From Darksidea phi (Eukaryota > Ascomycota > Dothideomycetes > Pleosporales > Lentitheciaceae): 64,000 bases of DNA. Each line of letters starts with the position of its first letter. Positions within the stretch are counted from its first letter, which is position 1. The stretch is from positions 52,636-116,635 of the forward strand of contig JASJFT010000142.1 of the NCBI GenBank assembly GCA_030770425.1, read 5' to 3'. The notes beneath the pieces were generated by a model. That model was given only the letters and a program-made list of their open reading frames with translations. It was not told the DNA's origin and did not search any database. Below, piece by piece: positions 38,977 to 53,991 of the stretch. Position numbers and translations under genes: made by a program.

Positions 38977-39819
38977 CTAATCATCCCAAAAATCTTTCCC
39001 GCCGTACTTGTTTCCGATGAATGCCTTGCCTGTCTCCTCGAGGACAACACCGTCGTACGTATGGGACGGCCCGCTTGCCTTCCCCTTCCAGTCACCGCCG
39101 AATGTATCCCCCATTTGTGCCTTCCCTTTGACCACAACGTTCAAGTACTGGTGGCCAGTGAGAGCCTCTTTCGCTGCAGCCTGCAACAGACCGTCTACGC
39201 CTTCGGTAGCACTTTCAACAAGCTCCAGAGCTTGTTTCTCCTTGATCTCTGCCGCCTCTTCCCTCACAAGTAGAAGCTTCGATTCCGGGGCAGGAAAGAG
39301 CTTTTCAATGTTGTCGATAAGCGAGGTAATGCTGCTGACTAGTTGCTTGAGTTCGCCCCTGTGATAAAGAGCCCAGCTGCTAGTCTTCAAAACACTAGCA
39401 CCTTTCTGCCGTCTAATTGCTAGCTCTTTCATTTTATCTCTAAGACCGGAGACTGCGGGGTCTAAGTCATCGGGTGCAAGCACTGAAAGATCGTCCCCAC
39501 CGCTGCTTTCCAACCTGTACTTCTTTGACAACTTCTCCGTTTCCGAGAAGAGCACCAAGATCTGGTGTAACGTGTTCTTCGCTGTCTGGACTTCGGAAGG
39601 CTTTGCGTCTGGCCTGCCTAGGTTTTGATCTTCGTGGATTTTCACGGCCTGTCCCCACCGCGTGAGGCGAAGTCTGGCACAGTCGAGGATTACCAGCTCC
39701 GTCTGAAGGTCTCGTCCAAAGTGACGGCCAAGCTGCACATAGCCAAAACAATCAACACAGGCGTCGAAGGCAGCAGCGATGCCCACCGTGCCGGCCACAA
39801 TCCCAAACGGTTCGGCCAT
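38977..39819 (-). CDS. HET-S-like HeLo-domain protein with C-terminal prion-forming repeats
   Basis: In Podospora, HET-S/HET-s are cytosolic proteins of programmed death in vegetative incompatibility: amyloid folding of the C-terminus activates the N-terminal HeLo domain, which moves to and damages membranes. Start at ATG 39819 gives 280 aa beginning MAEPFGIVAG, close to the 289-aa HET-S and in the same register. The HeLo domain covers about residues 1-225 (CVDCFGYVQLGRHFGRD; RRQKGASVLKTSSWALY). The tail has two pseudo-repeats: GKAQMGDTFGGDW (232-244) and GKAFIGNKYGGKDFW (264-278). Residue 23 is Asp and residue 33 is His; His at 33 is the HET-S rather than HET-s state in Podospora, Asp at 23 the HET-s state. 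The frame is uninterrupted and intronless. An NLR at 50080 carries a similar motif. Confidence 0.93.
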   Translation of the reverse strand: MAEPFGIVAGTVGIAAAFDACVDCFGYVQLGRHFGRDLQTELVILDCARLRLTRWGQAVKIHEDQNLGRPDAKPSEVQTAKNTLHQILVLFSETEKLSKKYRLESSGGDDLSVLAPDDLDPAVSGLRDKMKELAIRRQKGASVLKTSSWALYHRGELKQLVSSITSLIDNIEKLFPAPESKLLLVREEAAEIKEKQALELVESATEGVDGLLQAAAKEALTGHQYLNVVVKGKAQMGDTFGGDWKGKASGPSHTYDGVVLEETGKAFIGNKYGGKDFWDD

Positions 39820-39954
39820 CTGAATTTGGTATCTGGAGGGCGCAGAGGGATGCACCAATGACTAGAGGGAGTTGTAATCAATGTGAACGGTGTCGTTGAA
39901 AGTTGAACGTATGGTGTGGCCTGTAGACGAGGCCTTACCCCGCACCTGATTAGC

Positions 39955-40035
39955 GCTTGAAATGCTAAATTAGGCCACCGCGCCTGAACTGCTAAATAAG
40001 GCCACTGCGCCTGAACTGCTAAATTAGGCCCCCCC
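39955..40035 (+). repeat. 27-bp tandem repeat, 3 units
   Basis: Three head-to-tail units of the type GCCTGAACTGCTAAATTAGG... lie upstream of the HET-S-like gene, with a few substitutions between them. Confidence 0.75.
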
Positions 40036-40411
40036 GCCTGCAGCTAAGCATTCTAGGACGTGTTCCACGCTAAGCGATCTGCATCGGCCTGCAGTGATAT
40101 CCGCCGGAGAAATTCCGGCTTGGCACTTGGAACTGAAGCTCCGCCAGCACGTGGGCATTTGCAAAATGCTGGCGCAACATCTCGAACAATAAACGATCGA
40201 GTCTCTTCCTGTTCCACTCTCCACCCTCCGCATGCGCTGCACCTCGCCCGGTGCGAATCTAGCAGCATCTGCTGTCTGCACAGTCCTTCCCCGACATTCA
40301 GCTCCGCCGTCATCCGCGGATAGCTCCCTGACCAGCCAGCCTCGCCCCGCCTACCTCGTCCGTCCCGCCAGCAGTCCATTCCTACTCGCTAACATAATGG
40401 AACAGTGTTCC

Positions 40412-40978
40412 CTACACACCGTCATTCATCTCCAAAGGGAAGAGCCGCTTACCACTTCCTCCCCTCCCCTCCCCTCCCCTTCTCCCTTCGCTCATCTTAA
40501 CTATGGAGGTAACAATGACGATTATTTGCCTTGCAATGACGTACCACCGGACGAAGAGTGCGTCTATACTGTAAATACAAGACTTGCATATCCCAACAAG
40601 GGAGTCTAAGGTAAACAATATACAGCGACAACTGCCGCCGTTTTGGGTGCCGCCGTTTTGGGTACTACTATTTTGGGTGCTGTGACTGTTGGTGCTACTA
40701 CTGTTGGTACTACTACTGCCGGCGCTGTCGTCTTTGGCACTGCCATTATTAGTGTTGTTATTGTTGGTGCTTCTCGTGCTGCTGTCTTCGTCTTCCTGTA
40801 GGTCTACGTCCATCGTGTCAATTTGTGCGTCTAAATCAGCGTCTTTCAGCTCGTCGTCTCCTTTCTGGAGAGCTGCTTCCAGATGGGCGATTTTGTTTTT
40901 ATTGTCCTCTCTTTGCCTGGCACGTAGTTTTTGGAGTGTACGTTCAGCCCTCCTTTTCCGGCGACGCAATCGAAAAAG
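40412..40978 (-). CDS. low-complexity ORF with a bZIP-like basic/coil stretch (doubtful)
   Basis: An open minus-strand frame of about 185 codons begins after a TAG and has no ATG at its 5' end. It encodes RRRKRRAERTLQKLRARQRE followed by leucine-spaced helix and an acidic patch, then a long Ser/Thr/Asn run and hydrophobic residues. The first part resembles a basic region with a short zipper, but the canonical N..AA..(S/C)R pattern is not clear. It may be one exon of a decayed transcription factor gene or an accidental frame over Asn/Ser repeats. Confidence 0.25.
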   Translation of the reverse strand, partial: LFRLRRRKRRAERTLQKLRARQREDNKNKIAHLEAALQKGDDELKDADLDAQIDTMDVDLQEDEDSSTRSTNNNNTNNGSAKDDSAGSSSTNSSSTNSHSTQNSSTQNGGTQNGGSCRCILFTLDSLVGICKSCIYSIDALFVRWYVIARQIIVIVTSIVKMSEGRRGGEGRGGSGKRLFPLEMNDGV

Positions 40979-41589
40979 CTATCCCGCATCTCCCTAAGGA
41001 AGTCGAGTCAATCCTGGAGCCAGCCCTTCGAGCTCTGCAGGCTTCCCATAGTGCGAACTCCGCCCTTCATCTGCGCAGGGGAGAGGAGGAGAACTGGTGT
41101 ACCCTGAAGTTGCAGCTTGACTCGATCACCCTGGCTTACGGAAATGTCGATATCGATGTCGAAATCGAGATCTCTCCCACTCCATTCGTCATGTGGATAT
41201 TTCCAGCGCGAAAATTGTCGACATCAGAATAGACATAGCTAGTATATGGTATCGGCAAAAAATTGGATGCTTGAAACTGTGTCCGAATCTGCCAAGATTA
41301 TCTCGTCCACATACGAGGAGGGCATAGGGCTTTCATCTTTTCCGAGGGTGCTGCTATGTATGACCTCCGCCTCTTCAGTTCCATCTTGCTACTCTTCAGC
41401 GCCACCGAGCTCCGGAAACTAGTGGACTATGTTCGCGTCTCCTTCGCCGAGGATTGTGCTCGACGGATTGCTCTGAATTCCAGCGGGAGAGCGCGCGACA
41501 GGAGGATTCTGCCGTTCCTGAGCCGGTGAGTAGACAATAGGAAGCGGTTGTTGCAACGCCGGTATCAACTATGGCAATGGCGCAGTTCC
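40979..41589. other. region with one unassigned plus-strand frame
   Basis: The + strand is open to 41232 (ending ...FPARKLSTSE) with balanced composition, but shows no recognised domain or start. The rest is non-coding as far as I can see. Confidence 0.3.
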
Positions 41590-41975
41590 CACATATTATA
41601 TTAACTACTAAAGACTTTATATAATTATTAACTTATAATAATATAGTTAATAAGTTTTAAGTATTAATATATTTCTTCTATCTCTTATAACTACTCTAAT
41701 ACTAGACTATATTCTCTATAACTTCATAGAACTTATTATTATTATGTAGATACTAGTATTCTAAAATATTAAAATTTATTATAATAGTTTAGTACTAAAA
41801 GTAAGGATAAAAGCTAAGCGAATAACTTTAATTTACTAACTTAATAACTTCAACTATATTAGGTCTATTTAAGTAATTTTTAATTCTATTTATACTTCTA
41901 AAATAGATCTTTATATCGAACTAAAAATTATATAAATAAGCCTAGTATAGCTAGAGTTATTAAGTAAAAGAGATT
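41590..41975. repeat. short RIP-like AT-rich relic
   Basis: About 390 bp of sharply AT-rich sequence with TA-dominated dinucleotides lies inside balanced DNA, as in the two large retrotransposon blocks. It abuts the truncated 3' end of the kinase fragment at 42013. The parent element is not identifiable. Confidence 0.55.
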
Positions 41976-42012
41976 TCTTGGCGTAACCTGATAGCTCGCT
42001 TGTATTGACAGC

Positions 42013-42471
42013 TCACTTGTAAAACACGTTAACGCCTTTCGGGTGAATGAATACGAGCGCCTCTACTGCTTGCGTCGTCCACTTTTGCCGAAGTTGTAAA
42101 GGAATGTTATCGTGCTCATGTTTTGATATATAGCTACAGATATCGCCATTGAGGGCCCGTTGAAGAAGGATTCCGTGTTCATGTTTGCCCAGATAGTTGA
42201 CGATTCTGTCGTGCTGCCCTAGTGCTGAAAGAATGGAATGTTCAAAATTGAGACTGTTGAGCGCATCGCGGTCTTCTCTATCGCATACGTATTTGAGCAC
42301 AGTTCCGTTTGGAAGGAGCCCTAGACGTGCTGTGTTTCCGCCGGAGAAGAACTCCGTCACTCCAGGAGGATACCAAGGCTCAAGGTATCTAACCTTAACC
42401 ATTGGATTGGCCGGGTCAACATGGTATTTGCCATCCTCTGGCACCGGTGTGCCATCAGTATACGTGGCCAT
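42013..42471 (-). pseudogene. fungal protein-kinase-like gene, truncated after the N-lobe
   Basis: The frame starts with ATG 42471 and encodes 152 aa: SGGNTARLGLLPNGTVLKY (N-lobe with the Lys strand), EHSILSALGQHDRIVNYLG (helix C), then WTTQAVEALVFIHPKG, which in relatives runs into the catalytic loop. Here it degenerates (VNVFYK, stop), so the loop Asp, DFG and C-lobe are absent. The break lies beside the AT-rich relic at 41590-41975, so a repeat insertion and RIP probably removed the 3' half. The family is the short fungal Ser/Thr kinases common in expanded accessory regions. It cannot be catalytically active as sequenced. Confidence 0.65.
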
Positions 42472-42829
42472 ATCTTAAATTTCGGCTCTGCAGCAACAAA
42501 ACGAAAAGACAGCTCCACAAGCCGGCACGTAGTGAACAACAATCGGCTTTGTGGCATGAACAACTTTCAGAAAGCAAGAATATCGCTGATCAGCTTTGAA
42601 GGGTGGCACTGCCAGGCGTTTCATTTAAGCGATGGGAATTTCTCCGGAGGCGATGCTAGCGCCAAATCAGCGCCACAAAACCAATCATCAGCACGCTTTT
42701 CCCCAGTCGAAGTTTAATCCTAGCCTGACAATCAAGTCTTTGGCGCCATGCCGCTGTCCGGGCGTAATAAATCATCATCATCTCCCCATCACCAACATCG
42801 CAGCCGCTCATACCAAACGCCATTTCGAG
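42472..42829. other. divergent intergenic region
   Basis: About 360 bp between the divergent kinase fragment and the phosphotransferase-like pseudogene. No separate feature is seen. Confidence 0.35.
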
Positions 42830-43626
42830 ATGGATCAGAGTCGGGATCCCTTCAATGGCAAATACGGCCAGCTCCACCTGATCAAAGAGATCGGGTCTAA
42901 ATATTATGTAGAGACCGAGCACAGCTTTACCAAACGCCAGCCTCTTCGCGTCGTTCAAGGTGGCACGACCGGCCGGAAATGGGGCCCGCAGCGTCTTTAT
43001 AATGAGGCCGTCGTTCTCGACTTCATCTCCCAGAACACCATGATCCCGGTGCCACGGCTGCTCCAGCACGGCTGCTCCAGCACGGCTGCTCCAGCACGGC
43101 TGCTCCAGCACGGCTACGATAGCCACGGTCGATATTACGTTACGATGAAGCGCATGAGCAGTATCACTCTTTCCAAGATCGGCGATCGATGTCGCAAGCC
43201 AGGCGGTGTTCAGCATGTCATTTCGGGGCGCTGCGGAGTGTGCCAAGATATTGCTCGGAAGAATGCCGACGACTTCATCTCCCGGAATGTTATTCCCCAG
43301 CTTCAATCATTCTGGTCCTACGAGACGGTGTTTGAAGATTTTGTCCTCCCGTCGCCTCGCATCGTTGAGACGCGCGAGCGGGACAGCTGGCCGGTCAAGA
43401 GATCCCTGGCAAAGGAGTATTGCCTTGTCCACGGAGATCTCGCGGCTTAAACCATCATGATGTGCCTGGACACGCTTCGGGTTAAGTACATATTCGATTG
43501 CGAGCAAGTGGATACTACCCTCCTGAGATGGAGCTGGAGGTGTGGAGCATGCAAAGCATCGGCTACTACGAGCTGTTCGACAACGATAAACTTATTGACC
43601 GGGAGATCCGTCTCATCACGCCATAG
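42830..43626 (+). pseudogene. APH/choline-kinase-like phosphotransferase, broken
   Basis: The start at ATG 42830 (MDQSRDPFNG) leads into a kinase-like fold of the fungal aminoglycoside-phosphotransferase type. The catalytic loop LVHGDL (around 43428) is followed at once by a TAA (43448-43450) where relatives have the Asn-bearing part of the loop. Downstream, LRVKYIFDCE continues in the same frame, then a one-base shift near 43507 is needed to reach SGYYPPEMELEVW and the end at 43626. A 14-bp minisatellite at 43056-43111 adds 14 codons in frame. Nonsense plus frameshift show it is inactive. The substrate of this family is usually unknown. Confidence 0.7.
43056..43111 (+). repeat. 14-bp coding minisatellite, 4 units
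   Basis: Four identical GGCTGCTCCAGCAC units lie in the phosphotransferase-like gene. Three extra units equal 42 bp, so the frame is kept although the unit is not a multiple of three. Confidence 0.9.
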
Positions 43627-43768
43627 ATATGGAGGGATATTCTTTTACAGTATATACTTATCTAGTAGTACGCCCGTCGTAGCTAGGGTAAGGAGTAGCT
43701 AGGACTCTCTAATAACAAATTGGTATACTAGTAGCTGCCGAGAAATTTTACATGCTAAACGAGGAGAT

Positions 43769-44095
43769 ATGGGTGTTGATGGGTTTGAAGATATCTTGGA
43801 AGAGTTTCCGCCACATTTCGACTGTGTCACACCGCTCTACAGAGAAATGCGAGGGATTTTATTTCCATACAAGGAGGGTCTATTCTTTGGGACACCCAAG
43901 GACCCGGAGATTCTCTACGAGCCGATTATCGAAGCCTTTGGCAAGGCTATTGATGATATCAAAGTAGGGAGTGATAGGTTGCTACATGCGGCCTTTGCTG
44001 TTCTCTGTCGAAATCGAAATCGGACGGTAATTCGTCTGTCACTGAGCGGATTCTGTCCAAATGCATTCGTACCTATATATTATAGACATTCTTAG
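43769..44095 (+). CDS. hypothetical protein, unrecognised
   Basis: An ATG-initiated frame of 108 codons, beginning MGVDGFEDILEEFPPHFDCV and with FGTPKDPEILYEPIIEAFGK further on. It has the look of a genuine conserved sequence up to about residue 65, then turns basic and less convincing, so an intron or a decayed 3' end is likely (GTAGGG just after DDIK). I do not recognise the family. It follows a possible retrotransposon scar at 43620-43735. Confidence 0.4.
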   Translation: MGVDGFEDILEEFPPHFDCVTPLYREMRGILFPYKEGLFFGTPKDPEILYEPIIEAFGKAIDDIKVGSDRLLHAAFAVLCRNRNRTVIRLSLSGFCPNAFVPIYYRHS

Positions 44096-46040
44096 TGAAC
44101 TTGTATACGTCCATTTCTCTTTTTCATCTGGTTCTGCGAAGTCGAACGTGCAAATAGAAGAGTTACCGTTGAGGGAAGGGGGCTGAGAAACGTTACTGCT
44201 CCCGCCTCCGCTTCCGTATCAGCAGGTCTCAACCAAGGCTGATTGCGTCTACTTGTCCTTCTACTGTAATTTCCTCAAGTCTTCTAGATCCTCCTGCGCG
44301 TTCCGAAGAATCTCCTTCATCCGAAAATAGAGTGTCCTGTCTTCGTTCTCTCACGGATTATTTATTGGGAAAACAACCCTTCGCAACCTATTAATATATA
44401 GAATTAATAGCTAATAGTATAGTATAAAGGTATAGGTTATCCGGTTAAGGAAATATCTTTCTCTACTAACTAGCCCTAATTTTAATTCCGCCAGCTTCTG
44501 GTTACTCTTATAGTTCTAGTATTTAAATTTGGTTACCCTAATAAATTTGCCCGGCCCGTTATAGTAAACGTATATCTAGAATAGTACCTAGAAGAATAAC
44601 TCTAGATCGAGTATAAATGAATAGTTCTTATTATCAAGAAGTACACTAATCGTTATAAATACTCGTATACCGGTCTTTCCTCGCGCTTCTAAAGACTCCT
44701 CCCGCTACTCCTTAATAGTAAGGTCGAGATAGATTAAGAACGTAGGTTAGAAGGGATTTTCGTCCTCTTTATTTATATAAGGTTATTTAGAGAGATATAG
44801 TATACCGGCCCGTATATATAGCGACTCGTAACCGAAAATACAACCTTCTAGTACGGTAAGGCTAGTCCGGGAACTCGCCTTATAGATAGGTTTTTCGTAG
44901 TTTCGGACGATAATGGGGCGATATACTCGATTCGCGGTCGTCCTCTCCCCCTTTATTAGGGAGCTCGAACAGGTTCGCTTGGTAGACGGCAACGGTGTGC
45001 TGGTGTAGCTGTTCCGGCCCGTCCGCGAGACGCGACGTCCATTTGCATTTGGAGGTAGTATCGAGCTCTCGGGTCTGTAGTTTGTCGCTTGGGTTATGTC
45101 TAGGCCTCGTCGTACGCTTACGCGGGTGTCGTCGTCCTGGCCGCCCACACGCACCGTCTCATGGTAATAGTATCTCGCAACATTGACTCAGTTCCTCTTT
45201 AGCACACCATCCATATATTTACAGTGTTCGGGAGAGTTCGCGAGGTTGCCCGTGTTGTACAGCCATGGCGTCTGCTGGAAGGAGGCGGTAAGGGACGGGG
45301 CGGATAGCGGAGGAGCTGTGGACGCGGCGACAGCGGCGTAAACATTATTCTAGATAACTTTATTGGGCTTGTTATTAGGGACCGCTCTGAGGAGCGATAT
45401 AATATACTTAATGTCGAAATTGCCGGAGTTGACCGCCGAGTTCAGCTCGAATAGATCGCCAAAGAGGTTTATGTTATTACCCCTAGAAGGCAGTGAACGA
45501 GATGCAGGGAGAACCTGCAAAGCTGATATGAGGTCAAGGAGGGAATTTTTGGGTCCTTTTGAAGTTAGGGATTTTCGCGAGTTGGTTATGTGCCGTACCT
45601 TCCCCACTGATATGGTGCAATGCATCAGCGACATAGCACTAATGAGTGAATGGATTAAACTAGTTGAGGAATACATCTGGTGACTAGTAGATGGCAACAC
45701 GCAGCAACTAGAACGAGCAGAGACGACAGAAGCAGAAACTACAAGGAGTAGAAAAACAGTAAAAAAGAGTAGACGAGTTTCGAATCGATTCCCATCTAAC
45801 ACACAACCGTTTCGCACAAACCCATATTAAAGCTCTCGTTATCAACGTAGATGTAACGACAAGTCGACCCAATCTAGTTGGCTAACTGTTAAGAATGGTC
45901 AGCTCGGTCTCCGACGAGATATCTAAAGTAATGGTTGACCATGACATTGTTTACCTCATAACCTTCAATCGAGTAATGAGAGTTGGGATCACTAGTACTA
46001 GTGTGCGTCATGTTGCCGTCTGGTATTAAGCAACTGGACC
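44096..46040. other. degenerate region without a supportable gene
   Basis: Composition is patchy, with AT-rich stretches at 44380-44700. A minus-strand frame (45350-45775) contains a hydrophobic start-like segment (LLFFTVFLLLVVSASVVSA) that could be a secretion signal, but it has no in-frame ATG. A frame at 44783-45154 has no recognisable domain. Both may be relics. Confidence 0.35.
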
Positions 46041-46274
46041 TTAAGAAACACTTTGATTAACTACGGACTTGATCGTGATTTTGTTGACTCTGTTCAGATC
46101 TACATCCTTGAAGAGCTTGTCGTTGTTAATTGCGCGTTGAATCTTCGCGACAACCGCATCCTTATAAGCTTGTTCAATAGCCCCAGTGGGGCGCATGAAA
46201 CCTGGTCCTGAAGTCGTAAGTGCGGTAGTGATCGTCCTGTAGAGCCTGGTTCTGACGCGTCCGATATTAGACAT
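46041..46274 (-). CDS. small basic protein of 77 aa, unknown function
   Basis: Starts at ATG 46274 (MSNIGRVRTRLYRTITTALT) and ends TAA at 46041. A TATATAAA box 121 bp upstream on the same strand and a CA-rich leader support a real transcript. The N-terminus is Arg/Thr-rich and the C-terminal half is amphipathic (AVVAKIQRAINNDKLFKDVD). No family recognised and no intron needed. Confidence 0.5.
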   Translation of the reverse strand: MSNIGRVRTRLYRTITTALTTSGPGFMRPTGAIEQAYKDAVVAKIQRAINNDKLFKDVDLNRVNKITIKSVVNQSVS

Positions 46275-46394
46275 GTTTGCTGGATAAATCGACTGCTGAG
46301 TGATTGAGTGGGATTTGAGAGTGTTGCTAAGCTTGAGAGTATTCAAAGTACTGGTTTCGAGAGCTGATGCACAAGACCTTAAAAGAAAAGGAGA

Positions 46395-46402
46395 TTTATA
46401 TA
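46395..46402 (-). promoter_or_regulatory. TATA box for the 77-aa gene
   Basis: TATATAAA on the minus strand lies 121 bp before the ATG at 46274. Confidence 0.5.
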
Positions 46403-46433
46403 TCCGAAATTCCCGTGGTACGCCTCCTCTCAT

Positions 46434-47518
46434 ACTACCTCCAGCTAGATTGAGGCGACCATCTATCTTTCCACCTATGTCGCTATGCCGCAGCGCGTAG
46501 ATATTTAAAGGTTTTAGTGAACGATCCGACGGGATGAACGAGTGGCGGGCAGGTCTATAGTTACAATATTGCCGTGTCGCGGCGCGTAGATATTTTAGGT
46601 TTCGATTTTGTTCAGAATTGTCGGCATCGCCATGCGGACCGGAGATCGAGGTGTAGGACTGCTCTGCCTCCTGAAGTGACTTGGAGTAGGTGGTCTAGGG
46701 AGCCGCACAAAGGAAGGGCCGCGATTGCAACGCAATCAAACTCTGATAAAATAGCCATTTAATCTGGTAACCTGTAAGAATGTGGATTCCGGGAGGTTGG
46801 GGACGCTGAAGGAGCTGGGTAGGATGACAGAGCGATGTCGCATCCACGGCGTGATGCAGGAGCACTGAGTCGGGGTGAGTCGCGGAGAAGTTTGTTTGAG
46901 ATAAGAGATGGGTGTGGATGATGGGTGTGATGGAAGTTAAGAAGAGAGGTTTTTATACTGTGGGCGGGAGAGTGCGCAGTGTATTAGTGGTGCTGTATCG
47001 GTGGTGCTGCCTCCTCGCTACCACTGTTGACGCTCTCAACGCTCTGCCTCCAACCTGCCGTATATGGTAGGTGGCCGTGGCGTCTCCTGCGAACCGCGCC
47101 CAACGATAGATTATTACGCAATGAGGGATATTCTGGAGGGTTCTCGAGTCATACGTCTTTGCGACATCGCAGGACGCTTTGCCTGTTCCGATGGCCAGCA
47201 GTGCGGCCGGTTCCGCGTGACAGTTATGGCGCTGAGAGTCAACCTTTTTTAATACGTTTTGCATTATGCAGGTCTTCCATGCCGAATGCTATAGCACACT
47301 TTGCATTCGAAATAGGTATGCCAAGCCCATCTGACCAATGAACAACATGTTCAGTTCTGAATCTGAGTGTTTGGGCAAGCGCACACGTGTAGCCCCTCGC
47401 CATCATCGTCTCCATCATCACCAGGCAGCTCAAAGCGCACAATGTCACCATCATCAAGGCCCTTGTTCTGTTGAACAGATCAGATACATTGCTATCCTAC
47501 GGATCCTGCCTGCTTATA
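46434..47518. other. gene-poor region
   Basis: No supportable gene. The phrase GTCGC(G/A)...CGCGTAGATATTT occurs twice (near 46480 and 46575), hinting at an old local duplication. Confidence 0.3.
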
Positions 47519-47519
47519 T

Positions 47520-47618
47520 GCATGTAGGAACAAGGAACAAAGAAATAGATCGGCGACGTGGTGGTTATATACATGTAGGAACAAAGAACAAAGAAATAGA
47601 TCGGCGAGGTGGCTGAGT
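47520..47618 (+). repeat. 51-bp tandem duplication
   Basis: The segment beginning CATGTAGGAACAA at 47521 is repeated at 47572 with few changes; both copies contain AAGAAATAGATCGGCGA. Confidence 0.85.
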
Positions 47619-47721
47619 CTAGAGCCGAATTAGGTAAGGACCTCTTGTGAAAGTACGTTGCGCCGGAATGCGCCCCTGTACGCTCCTATTCCTCTCTGTT
47701 CACTTCCTCTCTATTCGCCTG

Positions 47722-47729
47722 TATATAAA
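47722..47729 (+). promoter_or_regulatory. TATA box for the 120-aa gene
   Basis: TATATAAA stands 127 bp upstream of the ATG at 47849. Between them lies an 18-bp direct duplication (47801-47818 and 47819-47836, CGTGTGTATTTAGGCTCA). Confidence 0.55.
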
Positions 47730-47848
47730 GGGGCCTTGCCCCCCCCCCACATGCCCTACACAGGGACCTCAATATACTCAATTCTCAGCTTTACAAAGTA
47801 CGTGTGTATTTAGGCTCACGTGTGTATTTAGGCTCACAGCTATAGAAA

Positions 47849-48211
47849 ATGGCTACCGTATTGACGTATTACGAATCTCAAATGGGCAACTTACGTCTCG
47901 CGGGGAGTATTTTATACGGGAAACTGTACATACAACGCGGACAGTATAAGTATGCTACCTTTGACCTCAATACGACTATTTCTTGGGTAGATAACCGGCT
48001 CGTTTGGAGTAGCGAAGGACCCGGAGGGTTCAAAGAACAGGTCGATGGCTTCGAACTACGCCGGACGGGCAAGGAGCAACTGATAGTAGATCATATGGCG
48101 CTTTATGCTACAAAAGGCGATGCTAAATCCACCTTGGAGCTTGAAAAGTTTCTAGGTATGAATTTGGTTGGGGAATTTGTTCCAATGAAAGGAAAGGAAA
48201 GTAAAACCTAG
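47849..48211 (+). CDS. 120-aa protein, possibly CVNH-like lectin fold
   Basis: ATG-initiated frame, intronless, with a TATA box. The central stretch YATFDLNTTISWVDNRLVW recalls the repeat of cyanovirin-N homology (CVNH) lectins, where an Asp-Leu-Asn strand is followed by an Asn-rich turn and a second strand. The rest (GFELRRTGKEQLIVDHMALY) is less like that family, and the disulphide cysteines are absent, so the assignment is weak. No signal peptide, hence cytosolic if real. It lies between relic-rich regions and shows no premature stop. Confidence 0.5.
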   Translation: MATVLTYYESQMGNLRLAGSILYGKLYIQRGQYKYATFDLNTTISWVDNRLVWSSEGPGGFKEQVDGFELRRTGKEQLIVDHMALYATKGDAKSTLELEKFLGMNLVGEFVPMKGKESKT

Positions 48212-49031
48212 TTGGAAGTGTGAGGGCTGACGGGCGATGTATGTACATACACTTGACCCGCGATATCACAGTAGCTGTCGTCGTTTGATTCCCGCATCAT
48301 AAAGACAGGACGTTATTATTTGTTATCGGAGTATAGATATATCAACAAGGCCCATTATTTGAATATCGCGAATGACAGCAAGAGAATTGTGTCGAATAAC
48401 TCTAGCTCTACACGGTGCCAGCGGCCGGATGACCGGACGACCAGCGTTACTATTTGCGGAATGGCGCGGACAGGGGTGCGCTTGCGTGGTCAGTACGGGG
48501 AAAGACAGTGAAAAAGTGTTTGGGTAGAAGCCGATTTCGAAAATGACTGTAACGCTTGCGCTTCTACTAAAATAGCCGCTATTATAAGATAATCGGCCTA
48601 GAAGGTTAAACTCGCGGAATAGTATAGGCAGGGTACCCTTTCAAGTCTTTCCTCGTAATTCAGTGAACCCTTGGTAGTGAGTTTCGCCCAATTAGGAAAC
48701 GCACGTGATTGCAGCTCCGTTTGTCACACTCATCCACGGCATAGGACCGCGGACTTGTGGTGGGATGAGAATGAAGCATATGGTGAAGACCCGCCAAGCT
48801 GTCTCCACTACTCCATGGAATGGAAGACATTCCTAGCTTAGTTTGTTATGGGCAAAGTCTTAGCTCATTTAAAGAAATCCTTCGCGGATTCGCCGGCCAT
48901 GTTCCCCGCTACTACCCATCCTCCGTCAACCTCAATATTGCTAAATGTATGCAGCGCACCTCCCTTCACGTTACCCAAGTCGCCCATAAGCAGCCTCGCG
49001 CTTTGGCAGCTTTGACGGATTTATAATCGTG
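48212..49031. other. intergenic region
   Basis: No domain-bearing frame in about 820 bp. Confidence 0.3.
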
Positions 49032-49810
49032 TCATGTTGCCTTCGTCGTCTCTTTGAATGCCGCCACGCAAGCCCGATAGCAGTGACTGAGCGCAACGGT
49101 TTGCTGCTCAACCGCATGCAGTACTTCGGATTGTTGGGCTTCCGTGAGCTGACGCTGAGGATCAGCCTTGTCGACCTCTCCGCTTTCAGAGCTTGCATCG
49201 AGAATCGCTTGCAGTCCGATTTGGAGGCCTTGCATTTGGCCTGTAAGCAGAGCGGTGGCCTCCTCGATTTTCGTTTCAAGACCTTTGGTGGCATCGAGGT
49301 TTTCGGATGCGCTTTTGCTTAGCAGCCTTGTTAGACATCGTGTAGGCTAAAAGGGGTGTTATCTTACAGAGTAGAGAAGTCAAGAGCGATAGCAAGTGTT
49401 GATTTATAGCTAGCCAGACGCGCTTGAAATGCGCCGATCTCCTTTTCCTGAAACTGCAGCTTGAGCCTGTCTCGCCAACTAGTCTGTTCGTCCTTGGAAC
49501 GGCGTATGAGCCTGTCGATCTTGCCGTTAAACGCGTCACAAGCGCTATGGCATGCTTGTAACGTAGGCTTTATTTCGCGCAAGTTCGACTTTTACGCTTC
49601 GGAAAGAGCCGCATCGGTGTCTTTCTTCTTCAGCTCTTGCTGCAAGGAATGTATGATTCCGTAGAGCGCTTCAACGTCCGTCTTCAGGTGGGTAAGGGTC
49701 TCGGAAGCATCGTGGATGCCCGAAATAGTTTGATAGAGTGTCTTGCTGCTGGAGTATGCAAGGGTAGCGACAGCAACAACGCCCGCAGTGATACTTAACG
49801 GGTCTGCCAT
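49032..49810 (-). pseudogene. HeLo-like (fungal STAND N-terminal) domain protein, one nonsense codon
   Basis: From ATG 49810 the protein begins MADPLSITAGVVAVATLAYS, the typical start of the fungal HeLo-like N-terminal domain (Pfam Helo_like_N) found alone or at the front of NLRs; HeLo-type domains act as membrane-targeting death effectors. The helices continue (GIHDASETLTHLKTDVEALY, HSLQQEL). An intron at 49367 down to 49318 (GTAAGA...TAAG) joins to SASENLDATKGLETKIEEA; the last exon is helical (LTEAQQSEVLHAVEQQTVAL) and stops at 49032. Expected length is about 242 aa. A TAA at 49592-49594 breaks the frame after residue 72; CAA to TAA is the RIP type. It is head-to-head with the NLR gene, 269 bp between starts, so a functional pairing is plausible. 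Confidence 0.65.
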
Positions 49811-50079
49811 GGCCGATACGTCTTGAACGGAGAAGTTTGGAAGGTGATTAGGATACTCTCGAAAGTGATCGTAAAAGCTCGGAGAAATGCGCTGCCTGGG
49901 TTCGCTGAGTTGTCGGGTCATCCCTCGTGGCTTTGCGGCTGACTCATGCATGCTACGTTACGCAGGGTCTCAACTTGTGGTGGGGTCTGTTCTTTACTGA
50001 GATGATTCCCTAGTTTGCCAAACCCTGATTCTACGACACTCCGCTCTTACGATGCTGCAAGCAGATATCCCATCCAAAT
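49811..50079. promoter_or_regulatory. divergent promoter, HeLo-like gene / NLR
   Basis: 269 bp separate the two divergent start codons. Such head-to-head effector/receptor pairs are common in fungal incompatibility loci. No clear TATA box. Confidence 0.45.
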
Positions 50080-53000
50080 ATGCCTAGCCGCGGTATGGAC
50101 GATGGACGCCCGTCCGGGCACCAGTACCAGAGCTCGTACATCGGCCCAGGCGCCAAAGCCCACCTCGGAGATACGTACCATATCGGTGAGCATACGCCAA
50201 AGACTGCAGCAGAAGCGATATACTGACCGGAAATCTAGGACTAGACAACCCCCTCAGTCGTTTACCATACGCCGAGGACGCGGCGTTCAACTCATACTCG
50301 AACCAACACGAGCCCACTTGCCTCCCTGATACGCGCGTAGACCTTCTCCATGAGATACACAGCTGGGCTGATGGACAAGATGAGCGGTGCATCTTCTGGC
50401 TGAACGGCTTGGCTGGTACGGGAAAGTCGACGATTGCGCGCACCATCGCTCGCAGATACTTTGAACAATGCCGTCTCGGGGCAAGCTTCTTCTTCTCACG
50501 AGGCGGTGGAGATGTCGGCCAAGCAGGAAAGTTCGTTACAAGTGTCGCTGTTCAGCTTGCGCACAACGTACCGGCTCTCTGTCAGCGCATTTGCGACGCT
50601 ATTACGGAGCGTAGCAACGTCGCCAGCCAGTCTCTCCATGACCAGTGGCGTCACCTCGTCCTTGGTCCGCTGTCGATGCTGAACGGGCTGTCATCATATG
50701 TTCTAGTCGTCGACGCGCTCGACGAGTGTGACGACGATAATAACATCCAGATCATTATACAGCTCTTGGCCGAGGCTCGATCGTTAGAGACAACCCGGCT
50801 ACGAGTGTTTCTGACAAGCAGACCTGAGATTCCAATTCGATCTAGGCTCTACCAAGTCCCAGACGCAGAGTACCAGGACTATGTACTCCACAAGATATCG
50901 CGGTCGATTGTCGACCACGATATCTCTCTTTATCTGGAGTATAAGCTGAGACTTATCGGGAAGGAACGCTCTCTAGACGCTGGCTGGCCGGGGAGAGAGA
51001 TCGTCACACGTTTGGTTCTGAGTGCAAACGGTCTGTTCATCTGGGCCGCAACTGCCTGTCGGTTTATTCGTGACGGGGGGAAATTCGCAGTCAAAAGACT
51101 CGACACGATCATCCACAGCAGCAGTAACACAGCCCCAGAGGAGTGTCTTAACGAGATATATGTTACTGTGCTCAAGCGGTCAATTTACCCCAACTTCACG
51201 GATGAAGAGAGAGAGGACCAATACGGAATGCTAAGGCATACGCTTGGAAGTGTAGTAGTCTTGTTTACTCCTCTTTCTGTCGGCTGTTTGAGTAGACTTC
51301 TACATGTTCCAAAACAGGACGTCGACCAGACACTGGAGGATCTACGTGCTATTCTCGATATTCCAGAGGACCAAAGCCACCCGCTCCGCTTGCATCATCC
51401 TTCCTTTCGCGACTTCCTCCTCGACAAAAAAAGATGTGGCGGTCCCAACTTCTGGGTAGAGGAGAAGCAAGCGCATCGGACGTTGGCCGCTAGCTGTTTG
51501 CGACTCATGTCAACCTCTCTCAAGCAAGACATCTGCGGCGTCGGTACCCCTGGTACGTTCGTGGCTGACATACAAAAGGGTCGAGTGGATCAATGTCTTC
51601 CTACGGAGGTTCGGTACGCATGTCTGTATTGGATACAGCATCTACAGAAGAGCGATATTCAACTATGCGACCACGACCAAGTGCACCAATTTCTAAAGGA
51701 GCATTTCCTCCACTGGCTTGAGGCGCTGAGCTGGATGCGGAAGGTCTCTGAAGGAATTCATGCCATTGTTTCTCTAGAATCCGTTGCCCTGGTAAGCCAC
51801 CACTACTGTATATGCCAACTCGATCCACTAAACTGTTCTTCAGGCTAGCGACTGTCCTAGTCTAGACACGTTTGTCCATGATATGAAGCGATTCGCGCTA
51901 TACAGCCGGTCAGCAATAGAGCAAGCTCCCCTCCAAGTATACTGCAGCGCGCTTGTTTTCGCGCCTACGATGAGTGTAGTAAAGAAGCAGCTTAAAGAGC
52001 AGGCGTCTAGATGGATCCGAAGATTACCTGCAGTTGAAATGGAGTGGAATGCGTTGCTGCAGACGCTCGAGGGGCATAGTTCTTGGGTCTACGCCGTGGC
52101 CTTCTCGCCCGACGGCAAGCTGCTGGCGTCCGGTTCACGCGACGGGACCGTCAGGCTCTGGGACGCCAGCTCGGGGGCGCCGCTGCGGACGCTTGAGGGG
52201 CATAGTTCTCTAGTCTACGCCGTAGCCTTCTCGCCTGACGGTAAGCTACTAGCGTCTAGTTCGTACGACAACACCGTTAGGCTCTGGGACGCCAGCTCGG
52301 GGGCGCCGCCGCGGACGCTTAAGGGGCTTAGTGCTCCAGTCTACGCCGTAGCCTTCTCGCCTGATAGCAAGCTGCTGGCGTCTGGTTTGGGTGACAAGAC
52401 TATTAGGCTCTGGGACGCCGGCTCAGGGGCGCCGCTGCGGACGCTTGAGGGGCATAGGAATTTAGTCTACGCCGTAGCCTTCTCGCCTGACGGTAAGCTG
52501 CTAGCGTCTGGTTCGTACGACAACACCGTTAGGCTCTGGGACGCCAGCTCGGGGGCGCCGCTGCGGACGCTTGAGGGGCATAGTGCTCTGGTCTACGCCG
52601 TAGCCTTCTCGCCTGACGGCAAGCTGCTAGCGTCCGGTTCGGACGATAAGACCGTCAGGCTCTGGGACGCCAGCTCGGGGGCGCCGCTGCGGACGCTTAA
52701 GGATCGTGCTCCGGTCTACGCCGTGGCCTTCTCGCCCAACAGCAAGCTGCTGGCGTCTAGTTCGGGCGACAAGACCGTCAGGCTCTGGGACGCCAGCTTG
52801 GGGGCGCCGCTGCGGACGCTTGAGGGGCATAGTTCCTTCGTCTTGGCCGTGGTCTTCTCGCCCGACGGCAAGCTGCTAGCGTCTAGTTCGTACGACAAGA
52901 CCGTCAGGCTCTGGGACGCCAGCTTGGGGGCGCCGCTGCGGAAGCTCGAGGGGCATAGTTCCCTAGTCTTGGCCGTGGCCTTCTCGCCCGACGGCAAGCT

Positions 53001-53991
53001 GCTAGCATCCGGTTCGGACGACAAGACCGTCAGGCTCTGGGACGCCGGATCGGGGGCACCGCTGCGGACGCTTAAGGGGTATAGTACTCCGGTCTACGCC
53101 GTAGCCTTCTCGCCTAATAGTAAGCTGCTGGCGTCTGGTTCGTACGATAATACCGTTAGGCTCTGGGACGCTAGCTCGGGGGCGCCGCTACGGACGCTTG
53201 AGGGACATAGTTCCTTCGTCTTAGCCATGGCCTTCTCGCCCGACGGCAAGCTACTAGCGTCCGGTTCGGAAGATGGGACCGTCAGGCTCTGGGACGCCAG
53301 CTCGGGGGCGCCGCTACGGACGCTTAAGAGGTATAGTTCTCAGGTCAACGCCGTAGTCTTGTCGCCTAATAGTAAGCTACTGGCGTCTAGTTCGTACAAC
53401 AAGACTGTCGAGCTCTGGGACGCCGGCTCAGGGGCGCCGCTACGGATGCTCGGGTGGTATAGTACTCCAGTCTTCGCCGTGGCCTTCTCGCCCAACGGCA
53501 AGCTACTAGCGTCTGGTTCGGGCGACGGGACTGTTAGGCTCTGGGACGCCAGCTCAGGGGCGCCGCTGCGGACGCTCGAGGGGTGTAGTGCTCTAGTCTT
53601 CGCCGTGGCCTTCTCGCCCGACGGCAAGTTGCTGGCGTCCGGTTCGGACGACGAGACCGTCAGGCTCTGGGACGCCGGATCGGGCGCACTCCTGCAGACA
53701 CTCGATAGGGGCACCTTCGGCAGAACTCTTTCTTTCGCCTATGACGGCGCCTCTCTCCAGACTGACAGGGGATCCTTCCCTATCTCAACCTCTTTCTCTG
53801 ATGGTACAGCTGTTCCCCAATCGCAACTTCCACCTTCTATTCTTGTCGAGGACCAATGGGTTAGTTGCCAGGCCGAGCGGATTCTTTGGCTTCCTCTCGA
53901 GCATCGGCCAAGCGTCTCTGCTGTTCATGGCAGTACTGTTGGTTTTGGGTACACGTCTGGAAGAGTCACGGTCATAGGATTCGCTTCCTAA
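50080..53991 (+). CDS. NACHT-WD40 NOD-like receptor (NWD type) with N-terminal amyloid-like motif
   Basis: A cytosolic signal-transducing NTPase of the fungal HET-E/HNWD class; ligand binding by the WD propeller is thought to trigger oligomerisation. The spliced model uses introns 50186-50238 (GTGAGC...CTAG) and 51792-51843 (GTAAGC...TCAG), giving about 1,268 aa. The N-terminus is short; residues 26-33 read KAHLGDTY, similar to KAQMGDTF of the HET-S-like protein at 38977. NACHT follows: P-loop GLAGTGKSTIA (about 50406-50438), Walker B VLVVDALDECDDD (50702 on), then helical regions with YFEQCRLGASFFFSRGGGD and HHPSFRDFLLDKKRC. From 52063 come 13 near-identical WD40 repeats plus a degenerate 14th. 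No premature stop. The start could be ATG 50080 or 50095. The N-terminal motif is inference; the NLR assignment is firm. Confidence 0.93.
52063..53697 (+). repeat. 13 tandem WD40 repeats (126-bp unit)
   Basis: Thirteen units of 42 codons follow each other without gaps; the sixth lacks one codon. Framework positions are nearly invariant (AFSPDGKLLASGS, TVRLWDA, SGAPLR). Changes concentrate at the residues after TLEGH, the residue before AV (Y, L, F or N) and the residues around the Asp of the GSxD turn, which sit on the ligand-facing surface of a propeller. Many other differences are synonymous C/T and G/A transitions. With the degenerate repeat at 53698-53790 the total is 14, enough for two seven-bladed propellers. 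Confidence 0.93.

What the first reader, a model, noticed from the sequence alone, without database searches (positions are those of the whole stretch)
38977..50185. Possible NLR / HET-S amyloid-signalling pair
Seen: the HET-S-like protein (38977-39819) ends in two pseudo-repeats, GKAQMGDTFGGDW and GKAFIGNKYGGKDFW. The NLR at 50080 has KAHLGDTY at residues 26-33, before NACHT, matching KAQMGDTF at 5 of 8 positions with conservative changes (M/L, F/Y) at two more. Known: in Podospora the NLR NWD2 carries one such motif ahead of NACHT and seeds amyloid folding of HET-S. Inference: this locus encodes a similar receptor/executioner system, with the two genes 10 kb apart rather than adjacent and with a HeLo-like gene head-to-head with the NLR.
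Basis: partly seen in the sequence, partly recalled or inferred. Interest (0 to 1): 0.9.

Follow-up and report, generated by a model that had tools for sequence, protein, structure and literature searches.

The report
Fungal NLR and HET-S amyloid-signalling pair
This stretch of a fungal genome encodes an immune-type receptor and a pore-forming cell-death protein that share a short prion-like motif, so it is probably a member of a known class of fungal cell-death switch, with its two genes 10 kb apart.

Summary
The HET-S-like gene (38977-39819, -) has a HeLo domain and two HET-s-type repeats, recognisable in the listed homologues. The NLR's first exon carries one such motif (r0). A profile built from r0 of other species' NLRs finds the window exon (46 bits). 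Its best hit outside r0 exons, in the translated DNA in hand, is HET-S repeat 1 in this window (14.7 bits, E=0.015; best shuffle 5.5). In Agyrium rufum, Curvularia clavata and Trichoglossum hirsutum a HET-S homologue and a related NLR have consecutive locus tags; r0 is visible in 2 of the 3. Here the genes are divergent, as in Podospora, but 10.26 kb apart, with repeats and a broken HeLo-like gene between. That gene's motif does not match r0; HET-S does, and a HeLo protein on another contig nearly as well. Splicing, fibrils and cross-seeding are untested. All three motifs have histidine at position 3, as in HRAM3; the canonical HET-s/NWD2 type, also in this genome, differs. Verdict: new member of a known kind, possibly in a one-executioner, several-receptor network.

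The parts
38977..39819 (-). HET-S-like gene, one exon, 280 aa: HeLo domain (residues 6-200) plus C-terminal prion-type region
   Evidence: PF14479 162.4 bits, E=1.6e-47; HET-S/HET-s HeLo structures E=5e-47; 329 homologues at E<=1e-5, 120 listed
39094..39156 (-). repeat r1, GHQYLNVVVKGKAQMGDTFGG (residues 222-242), two residues shorter than the 21-aa norm in the middle
   Evidence: recognisable in the 120 listed homologues except P0117, which lacks most of it; a few have insertions or substitutions in it
38998..39066 (-). repeat r2, SHTYDGVVLEETGKAFIGNKYGG (residues 252-274), followed by KDFWDD
   Evidence: family profile matches the HET-s(218-289) chain 2kj3 over 252-280, E=0.0036; single sequence E=0.14
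50080..50185 (+). NLR exon 1 (35 codons plus one base of a split codon), carries r0; splicing inferred
   Evidence: ORF; donor GTGAGC; database homologue P0121 82% identical over residues 1-60
50116..50178 (+). r0 motif of the NLR, GHQYQSSYIGPGAKAHLGDTY (residues 13-33)
   Evidence: r0 profile of 12 other species' NLRs: 46.3 bits, E=2e-12 in 528,690 translated residues
50186..50238 (+). inferred intron 1 (53 nt)
   Evidence: GTGAGC...CTGAC...TAG, restores frame
50239..51791 (+). NLR exon 2: linker, NACHT (NPHP3_N type) and downstream region
   Evidence: PF24883 E=1.1e-31, PF05729 E=7.5e-8
51844..53991 (+). NLR exon 3: WD40 repeats, after an inferred 52-nt intron (GTAAGC...CAG), one of 19 frame-keeping GT-AG choices listed
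   Evidence: PF00400 E=1.2e-190
48865..49810 (-). HeLo-like gene head-to-head with the NLR, apparently broken: in-frame TAA (49594-49592), then TGA (49034-49032) in the second-exon frame and a frame change after it
   Evidence: PF17111 54.3 and 61.5 bits in two pieces; sequence; the C23 paralogue is open at these places
48901..48954 (-). HRAM-like single motif near the C-terminus of the broken HeLo-like gene (LHTFSNIEVDGGWVVAGN)
   Evidence: r2 profile 8.1 bits, above all shuffles, but 6.7 bits against a best shuffle of 10.0 in the larger scan: weak
39820..48864 (.). rest of the stretch between the pair, with repeats and gene fragments (AT-rich block 41500-41999; dispersed repeat pieces in 44300-47300)
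   Evidence: GC 0.266 at 41500-41999; 25 of 26 matches of 44300-47300 lie elsewhere in the genome

Best explanation
An NLR/HET-S amyloid-signalling pair of HET-s-related (HRAM) type. Proposed mechanism, by homology with NWD2/HET-S: an unknown ligand is bound by the WD40 repeats; the NACHT domain oligomerises; this brings r0 motifs together and they fold as one-rung beta-solenoid amyloid; that templates the two-rung fold of r1-r2 in the HET-S-like protein; refolding unleashes the HeLo domain as a membrane pore and the cell dies. Shown by calls here: both domain architectures, a shared conserved motif, consecutive gene tags of homologous pairs in three other species, a predicted two-rung beta fold of r1-r2. 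Inferred: exon 1 splicing, ligand, oligomerisation, templating, pore formation, and that this NLR signals to this HET-S.
Confidence: 0.74

Rival explanations
1. The NLR's real partner is (or was) the head-to-head HeLo-like gene; HET-S 10 kb away is a bystander that serves another receptor.
For: The r0 NLR on C23, and an orphan r0 exon on C428, also lie divergently beside a HeLo-like gene or fragment; the C23 HeLo-like gene ends in a motif of similar pattern.
Against: In the window that gene has two stops and a frame change, and its motif does not resemble the window r0 (score 14, shuffle p 0.863) whereas HET-S does (43, p 0.001). Related NLRs in other species have tags next to the HET-S homologue.
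Confidence: 0.12
2. r0 is a real amyloid motif but its effector lies elsewhere in the genome (for example the C58 HeLo protein or a purine-phosphorylase type effector), as described for HRAM3-like NLRs.
For: C58 HeLo C-terminus scores 42 with r0 (p 0.004); PMC9815663 (sections 19 and 24) reports non-adjacent pairs and PNP_UDP effectors for its HRAM3-like motif.
Against: The best-scoring motif is HET-S, which is also the nearest intact HeLo gene; consecutive tags in three species. Purine-phosphorylase genes of this genome were not examined.
Confidence: 0.1
3. Chance resemblance: exon 1 is untranslated or belongs to no NLR transcript.
For: No transcript data; a pair score of this size arises in about 0.12-0.15% of shuffles.
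Against: r0 lies at the same place before NACHT in NLRs of several genera, and database proteins read through the same junction.
Confidence: 0.04

Closest known systems
HRAM3 subfamily of HET-s-related NLR/HeLo pairs (PMC4518210; example Cladophialophora psammophila W9WR11/W9XJW2 named in a figure legend of PMC5485727)
   Same: HeLo protein with two C-terminal repeats, NLR with one N-terminal copy, H at motif position 3 in all three, G19, K15 and mostly hydrophobic 5/8/10/16/18
   Different: 10.26 kb apart with a broken HeLo-like gene and repeats between; r1 two residues short; r0 position 8 not hydrophobic; subfamily logos and sequences could not be compared (figures and supplements not held)
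Podospora anserina HET-S / NWD2 (HRAM1)
   Same: HeLo + two repeats; NACHT-WD40 NLR with one motif near the N-terminus; divergent genes
   Different: H instead of N at position 3; no PF11558 match; 10.26 kb instead of the 0.6 kb given in PMC4344463. A canonical-type HET-s protein exists separately on contig C120 of this genome (PF11558 E=9.2e-23)
HRAM3-like motif NLR12 of PMC9815663, with non-adjacent NLR/effector genes
   Same: more receptors than effectors in some genomes and effectors not always adjacent
   Different: there the C-terminal partner was a PNP_UDP enzyme with a single motif; here a HeLo protein with two

Membership tests
HET-s-related amyloid-motif (HRAM) NLR/HeLo pair | HeLo-family cell-death domain in a short protein | tested here: met
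HET-s-related amyloid-motif (HRAM) NLR/HeLo pair | two imperfect C-terminal repeats of about 21 aa with G at 19 and hydrophobic 5, 8, 10, 16, 18 | tested here: met
   By my alignment to the pattern: r2 Y5 V8 L10 A16 I18 G19, no gap; r1 Y5 V8 V10 A16 M18 G19 with a two-residue deletion
HET-s-related amyloid-motif (HRAM) NLR/HeLo pair | one related motif at the N-terminus of a NACHT or NB-ARC NLR | tested here: met
   r0 residues 13-33; r0 profile 46.3 bits, E=2e-12. Four of five core positions kept; position 8 is Ser. Depends on the inferred splice
HET-s-related amyloid-motif (HRAM) NLR/HeLo pair | genes immediately adjacent (common, not universal: 98 of 155 in PMC4518210) | tested here: not met
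   10,260 bp between the start codons, with a broken HeLo-like gene between; consecutive tags in 3 other species
HET-s-related amyloid-motif (HRAM) NLR/HeLo pair | beta-solenoid amyloid formation and cross-seeding | not testable with these tools
Canonical HET-s/NWD2 (HRAM1) | N at motif position 3 | tested here: not met
   H at position 3 in r0, r1 and r2
Canonical HET-s/NWD2 (HRAM1) | match to Pfam PF11558 (HET-s 218-289) or PF17108 | tested here: not met
   no match for HET-S or exon 1; the C120 HeLo protein of the same genome does match PF11558 (80.5 bits), and its receptor's r0 reaches 17.0 bits with each model, below their cut-offs
HRAM3 subfamily | H at position 3 | tested here: met
   r0 GHQY, r1 GHQY, r2 SHTY
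HRAM3 subfamily | clusters with published HRAM3 sequences | not tested
   published sequence sets are supplements, not held

The most novel reading that the evidence does not exclude
The window is one node of a small amyloid network in which one intact two-repeat HET-S executioner serves at least three r0-bearing NLRs on different contigs (window, C23, C359). The window receptor would have kept, or switched to, HET-S after its own head-to-head HeLo-like executioner decayed. A further effector at C359 would carry three motif copies instead of one or two.
Probability: 0.25. Interest if true: 0.6.

Novelty: new member of a known kind. Interest (0 to 1): 0.42.

Why it matters
It adds a well-supported pair with H at motif position 3 to the fungal amyloid-signalling NLRs. 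It also gives a natural case in which a receptor has an apparently dead adjacent executioner of one class and a living, motif-matched executioner of another class nearby, so the question of how receptor-executioner pairings change can be tested directly with peptides.

Tried and rejected
Pfam HET-s models on the NLR N-terminus: no match for the window; one weak match (PF17108, 11.1 bits, below cut-off) for Agyrium. Not taken as decisive, because only 38 of 155 HRAM proteins match PF11558 according to PMC4518210. The r2 profile as a detector of r0: failed for the window (3.9 bits, below best shuffle). HeLo-like C-terminal motifs as HRAM: suggestive by eye, the window's above all shuffles but below the best shuffle, so not claimed. 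The matrix has 35 cells and no correction for that number. Genome-wide r0 search with one 28-aa peptide reached only the window and C428; C23 and C359 had been found through their NLR exon, so the number of r0 receptors is a lower bound: upstream DNA was in hand for 44 of the 84 NACHT matches, and in 3 of those 44 the r0 profile scored above its best shuffle. Search of the genome with the HET-S C-terminus found only itself. Rfam, tRNA and promoter scans were not run; they do not bear on the question. A claim that three-copy HRAM effectors are unreported is not made: a full-text search for het-s, nlr, triple, hram and sesa (listing only) and a search inside PMC4518210 showed none, but figures, supplements and subscription journals were not seen. 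In one search no fold family is excluded by its absence from the list.

Full report
Setting. The window lies on contig C49 (52636-116635) of an unnamed 51.35-Mb assembly of 477 contigs. The named relatives of its proteins are filamentous ascomycetes (class of the genera from my own knowledge). The genome has 84 NACHT matches, 18 HeLo matches and 33 HeLo-like/PigL_N matches; matches are counted per exon and per frame, and only the best candidates are scored.

The NLR. Exon 1 (50080-50185), a 53-nt intron, exon 2 (50239-51791), a 52-nt intron and exon 3 (51844-53991) make 1268 aa with NPHP3_N/NACHT and WD40 repeats. No transcript was available; the database proteins of Endocarpon pusillum (P0121, 82% over residues 1-60) and Lindgomyces ingoldianus (P0122, 69% over 82% of them) read through the same junction. 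Of 120 NLR homologues listed from 3679, a simple pattern flagged 10 with r0. By eye P0151, P0152, P0159 and P0210 also carry it and P0123 and P0188 carry degenerate forms; most of the other 104 have other N-terminal regions, are partial, or carry HET or other domains. r0 consensus of the 14 or 15 sequences aligned: GHQYxxxxIxxGAxAHLGDxYHIG.

Is the shared motif more than chance? Pairwise, score 43 is reached by 29 of 20,000 shuffles of exon 1. Profiles test it better. One was made from r0 of 12 NLRs of other species, with no effector and no window sequence. It was run on six-frame translations (528,690 residues, overlapping loci included more than once) of the window and the loci in hand. It ranks the window exon first (46.3 bits, E=2e-12), then an orphan exon on C428 (36.8), then HET-S r1 of the window (14.7 bits, E=0.015), then NLRs on C23 (10.0, E=0.42) and C359 (7.9, E=2); the best of one shuffle per segment scores 5.5. 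The 12 NLRs were reached from the window NLR and picked with an HRAM-like pattern, so the first hit shows conservation among NLRs rather than an independent discovery; the third hit is the one that bears on the pair. Conversely, the r1 profile (121 effector sequences, the window's included, so its own 46.7 bits is by construction) gives the window r0 as the next hit (9.6 bits, E=0.39, best shuffle 7.6). In the smaller set that profile ranked the window r0 8th of 2562 (8.9 bits), above all 2440 shuffles (best 6.3), with the Curvularia r0 first (20 bits). Against this: the r2 profile does not see the window r0 (3.9 bits, best shuffle 5.5), and r0 position 8 is Ser where the pattern of PMC4518210 (parts 1-3 of 5 read) expects a hydrophobic residue.

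Co-occurrence. Three HET-S homologues and three NLR homologues have consecutive locus tags and equal longest-contig lengths: Agyrium rufum MMC25_003189/003188, Curvularia clavata yc1106_03876/03875, Trichoglossum hirsutum M1813_001344/001343. r0 is present in the first two NLRs; the third protein lacks it, perhaps through a gene model that reads intron (inference). The records themselves could not be read. A second Curvularia homologue (yc1106_09450, the closest to the window) has no listed NLR neighbour, and in Zopfia rhizophila the effector P0117 and the NLR P0123 with a degenerate r0 lie on contigs of different length. Only the best 120 of 329 effectors and of 3679 NLRs were visible, so absences say little. 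None of the named effectors visible is from Endocarpon or Lindgomyces.

Arrangement. HET-S (minus) and NLR (plus) are divergent, as het-S and nwd2 are in Podospora, where the open frames are 0.6 kb apart (PMC4344463, passages). Here 10,260 bp separate the start codons. The stretch holds an AT-rich block (27% GC at 41500-41999), dispersed repeats (25 of 26 matches of 44300-47300 are elsewhere), a weak kinase fragment and a weak CVNH match, and a HeLo-like gene head-to-head with the NLR. That gene looks broken: in-frame TAA at 49594-49592, TGA at 49034-49032 and a later frame change, where the C23 paralogue is open. Insertions between formerly neighbouring genes are the simplest account of the gap; this is inference.

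Which effector? In a matrix of five r0 motifs and seven effector C-termini (35 cells, uncorrected), the window r0 scores best with its own HET-S (43, p 0.001), nearly as well with a HeLo protein on C58 (42, p 0.004), and not with the head-to-head HeLo-like gene (14, p 0.863). As a control, the canonical-type receptor on C120 scores 41 (0 of 2000 shuffles) with its neighbour HET-s, which matches PF11558 at 9.2e-23. The matrix is not clean: C359's r0 prefers C23's HeLo-like C-terminus (45) to its own neighbour (27, p 0.180), C23's r0 scores best with the C359 effector (39), then HET-S (34), then its own neighbour (31), and C120's r0 also scores 41 with the C359 effector (p 0.007).

Wider network. 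Each of the four r0 loci found (window, C23, C359, and the relic on C428) lies divergently beside a HeLo-like gene, a HeLo-like fragment or a helical-looking protein. At C359 the neighbour's N-terminal part has no convincing Pfam match and is followed by three motif copies: SHTYEGVRIKNNTMITVGN, GHSYLNMQVRGNFGFHMGN, GHRYKEIDIENNKVSTLGD. PMC9815663 (outline and sections 19 and 24 read) already reports non-adjacent partners and more receptors than effectors for an HRAM3-like motif, so a shared executioner is a known possibility rather than a new principle.

Verdict. The pair is very probably real and of a known kind: HET-s-related, with H at position 3 as in HRAM3 (subfamily inferred from that position; published sequence sets not seen). 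What is unusual is the separation, the apparently dead neighbour executioner, and the related receptors elsewhere in the genome.

Noticed in passing
contig C359:16010-17208 (locus L048), + strand: Beside an r0 NLR, an N-terminal ORF without a convincing Pfam match followed by an ORF with three HRAM-like repeats instead of one or two; the ORF runs into a glutamate-rich stretch at the contig end.
   Followed up: partly
contig C428:126998-127147 (-) and 127646-127753 (+) (loci L038, L040): Orphan r0 exon with a donor-like site but no NACHT match in the 3.2 kb held downstream, head-to-head with a HeLo-like fragment: probably a relic of a receptor/executioner pair.
   Followed up: partly
contig C120:62500-79573 (loci L041, L042): Canonical-type HET-s gene (PF11558 E=9.2e-23) flanked by two NACHT genes, one with r0 NTVQNVHGNDNSKIHVGNN; a further ORF ending in RLRVGDKFGGRDPDE lies between.
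   Followed up: partly
contig C23:86.6-89.6 kb (locus L049): Open HeLo-like gene divergent from an r0 NLR; its C-terminus GLHKYNDITVDGANLLAGN resembles a single HRAM, weakly by profile (8.2 bits, best shuffle 10.0).
   Followed up: partly
contigs C468:90878-93329 and C114:15850-17460: HeLo gene near a NACHT match (C468), and HeLo gene near a match to the NLR query that has three stops (C114), so a decayed pair is likely at C114.
   Followed up: no
contig C58:875-1462 and C45:106890-107063: Two related HeLo matches of another subtype; the C58 C-terminus has two repeats with QYGN(Q/K)Y and scores nearly as well with the window r0 as the window HET-S does.
   Followed up: partly
window 42013-42474 (-), 42629-43447 (+), 47846-48208 (+): Short pieces between the pair: a weak protein-kinase match (15.9 bits), an ORF without a Pfam match that contains a short tandem repeat, and a weak CVNH match (19.5 bits).
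   Followed up: no
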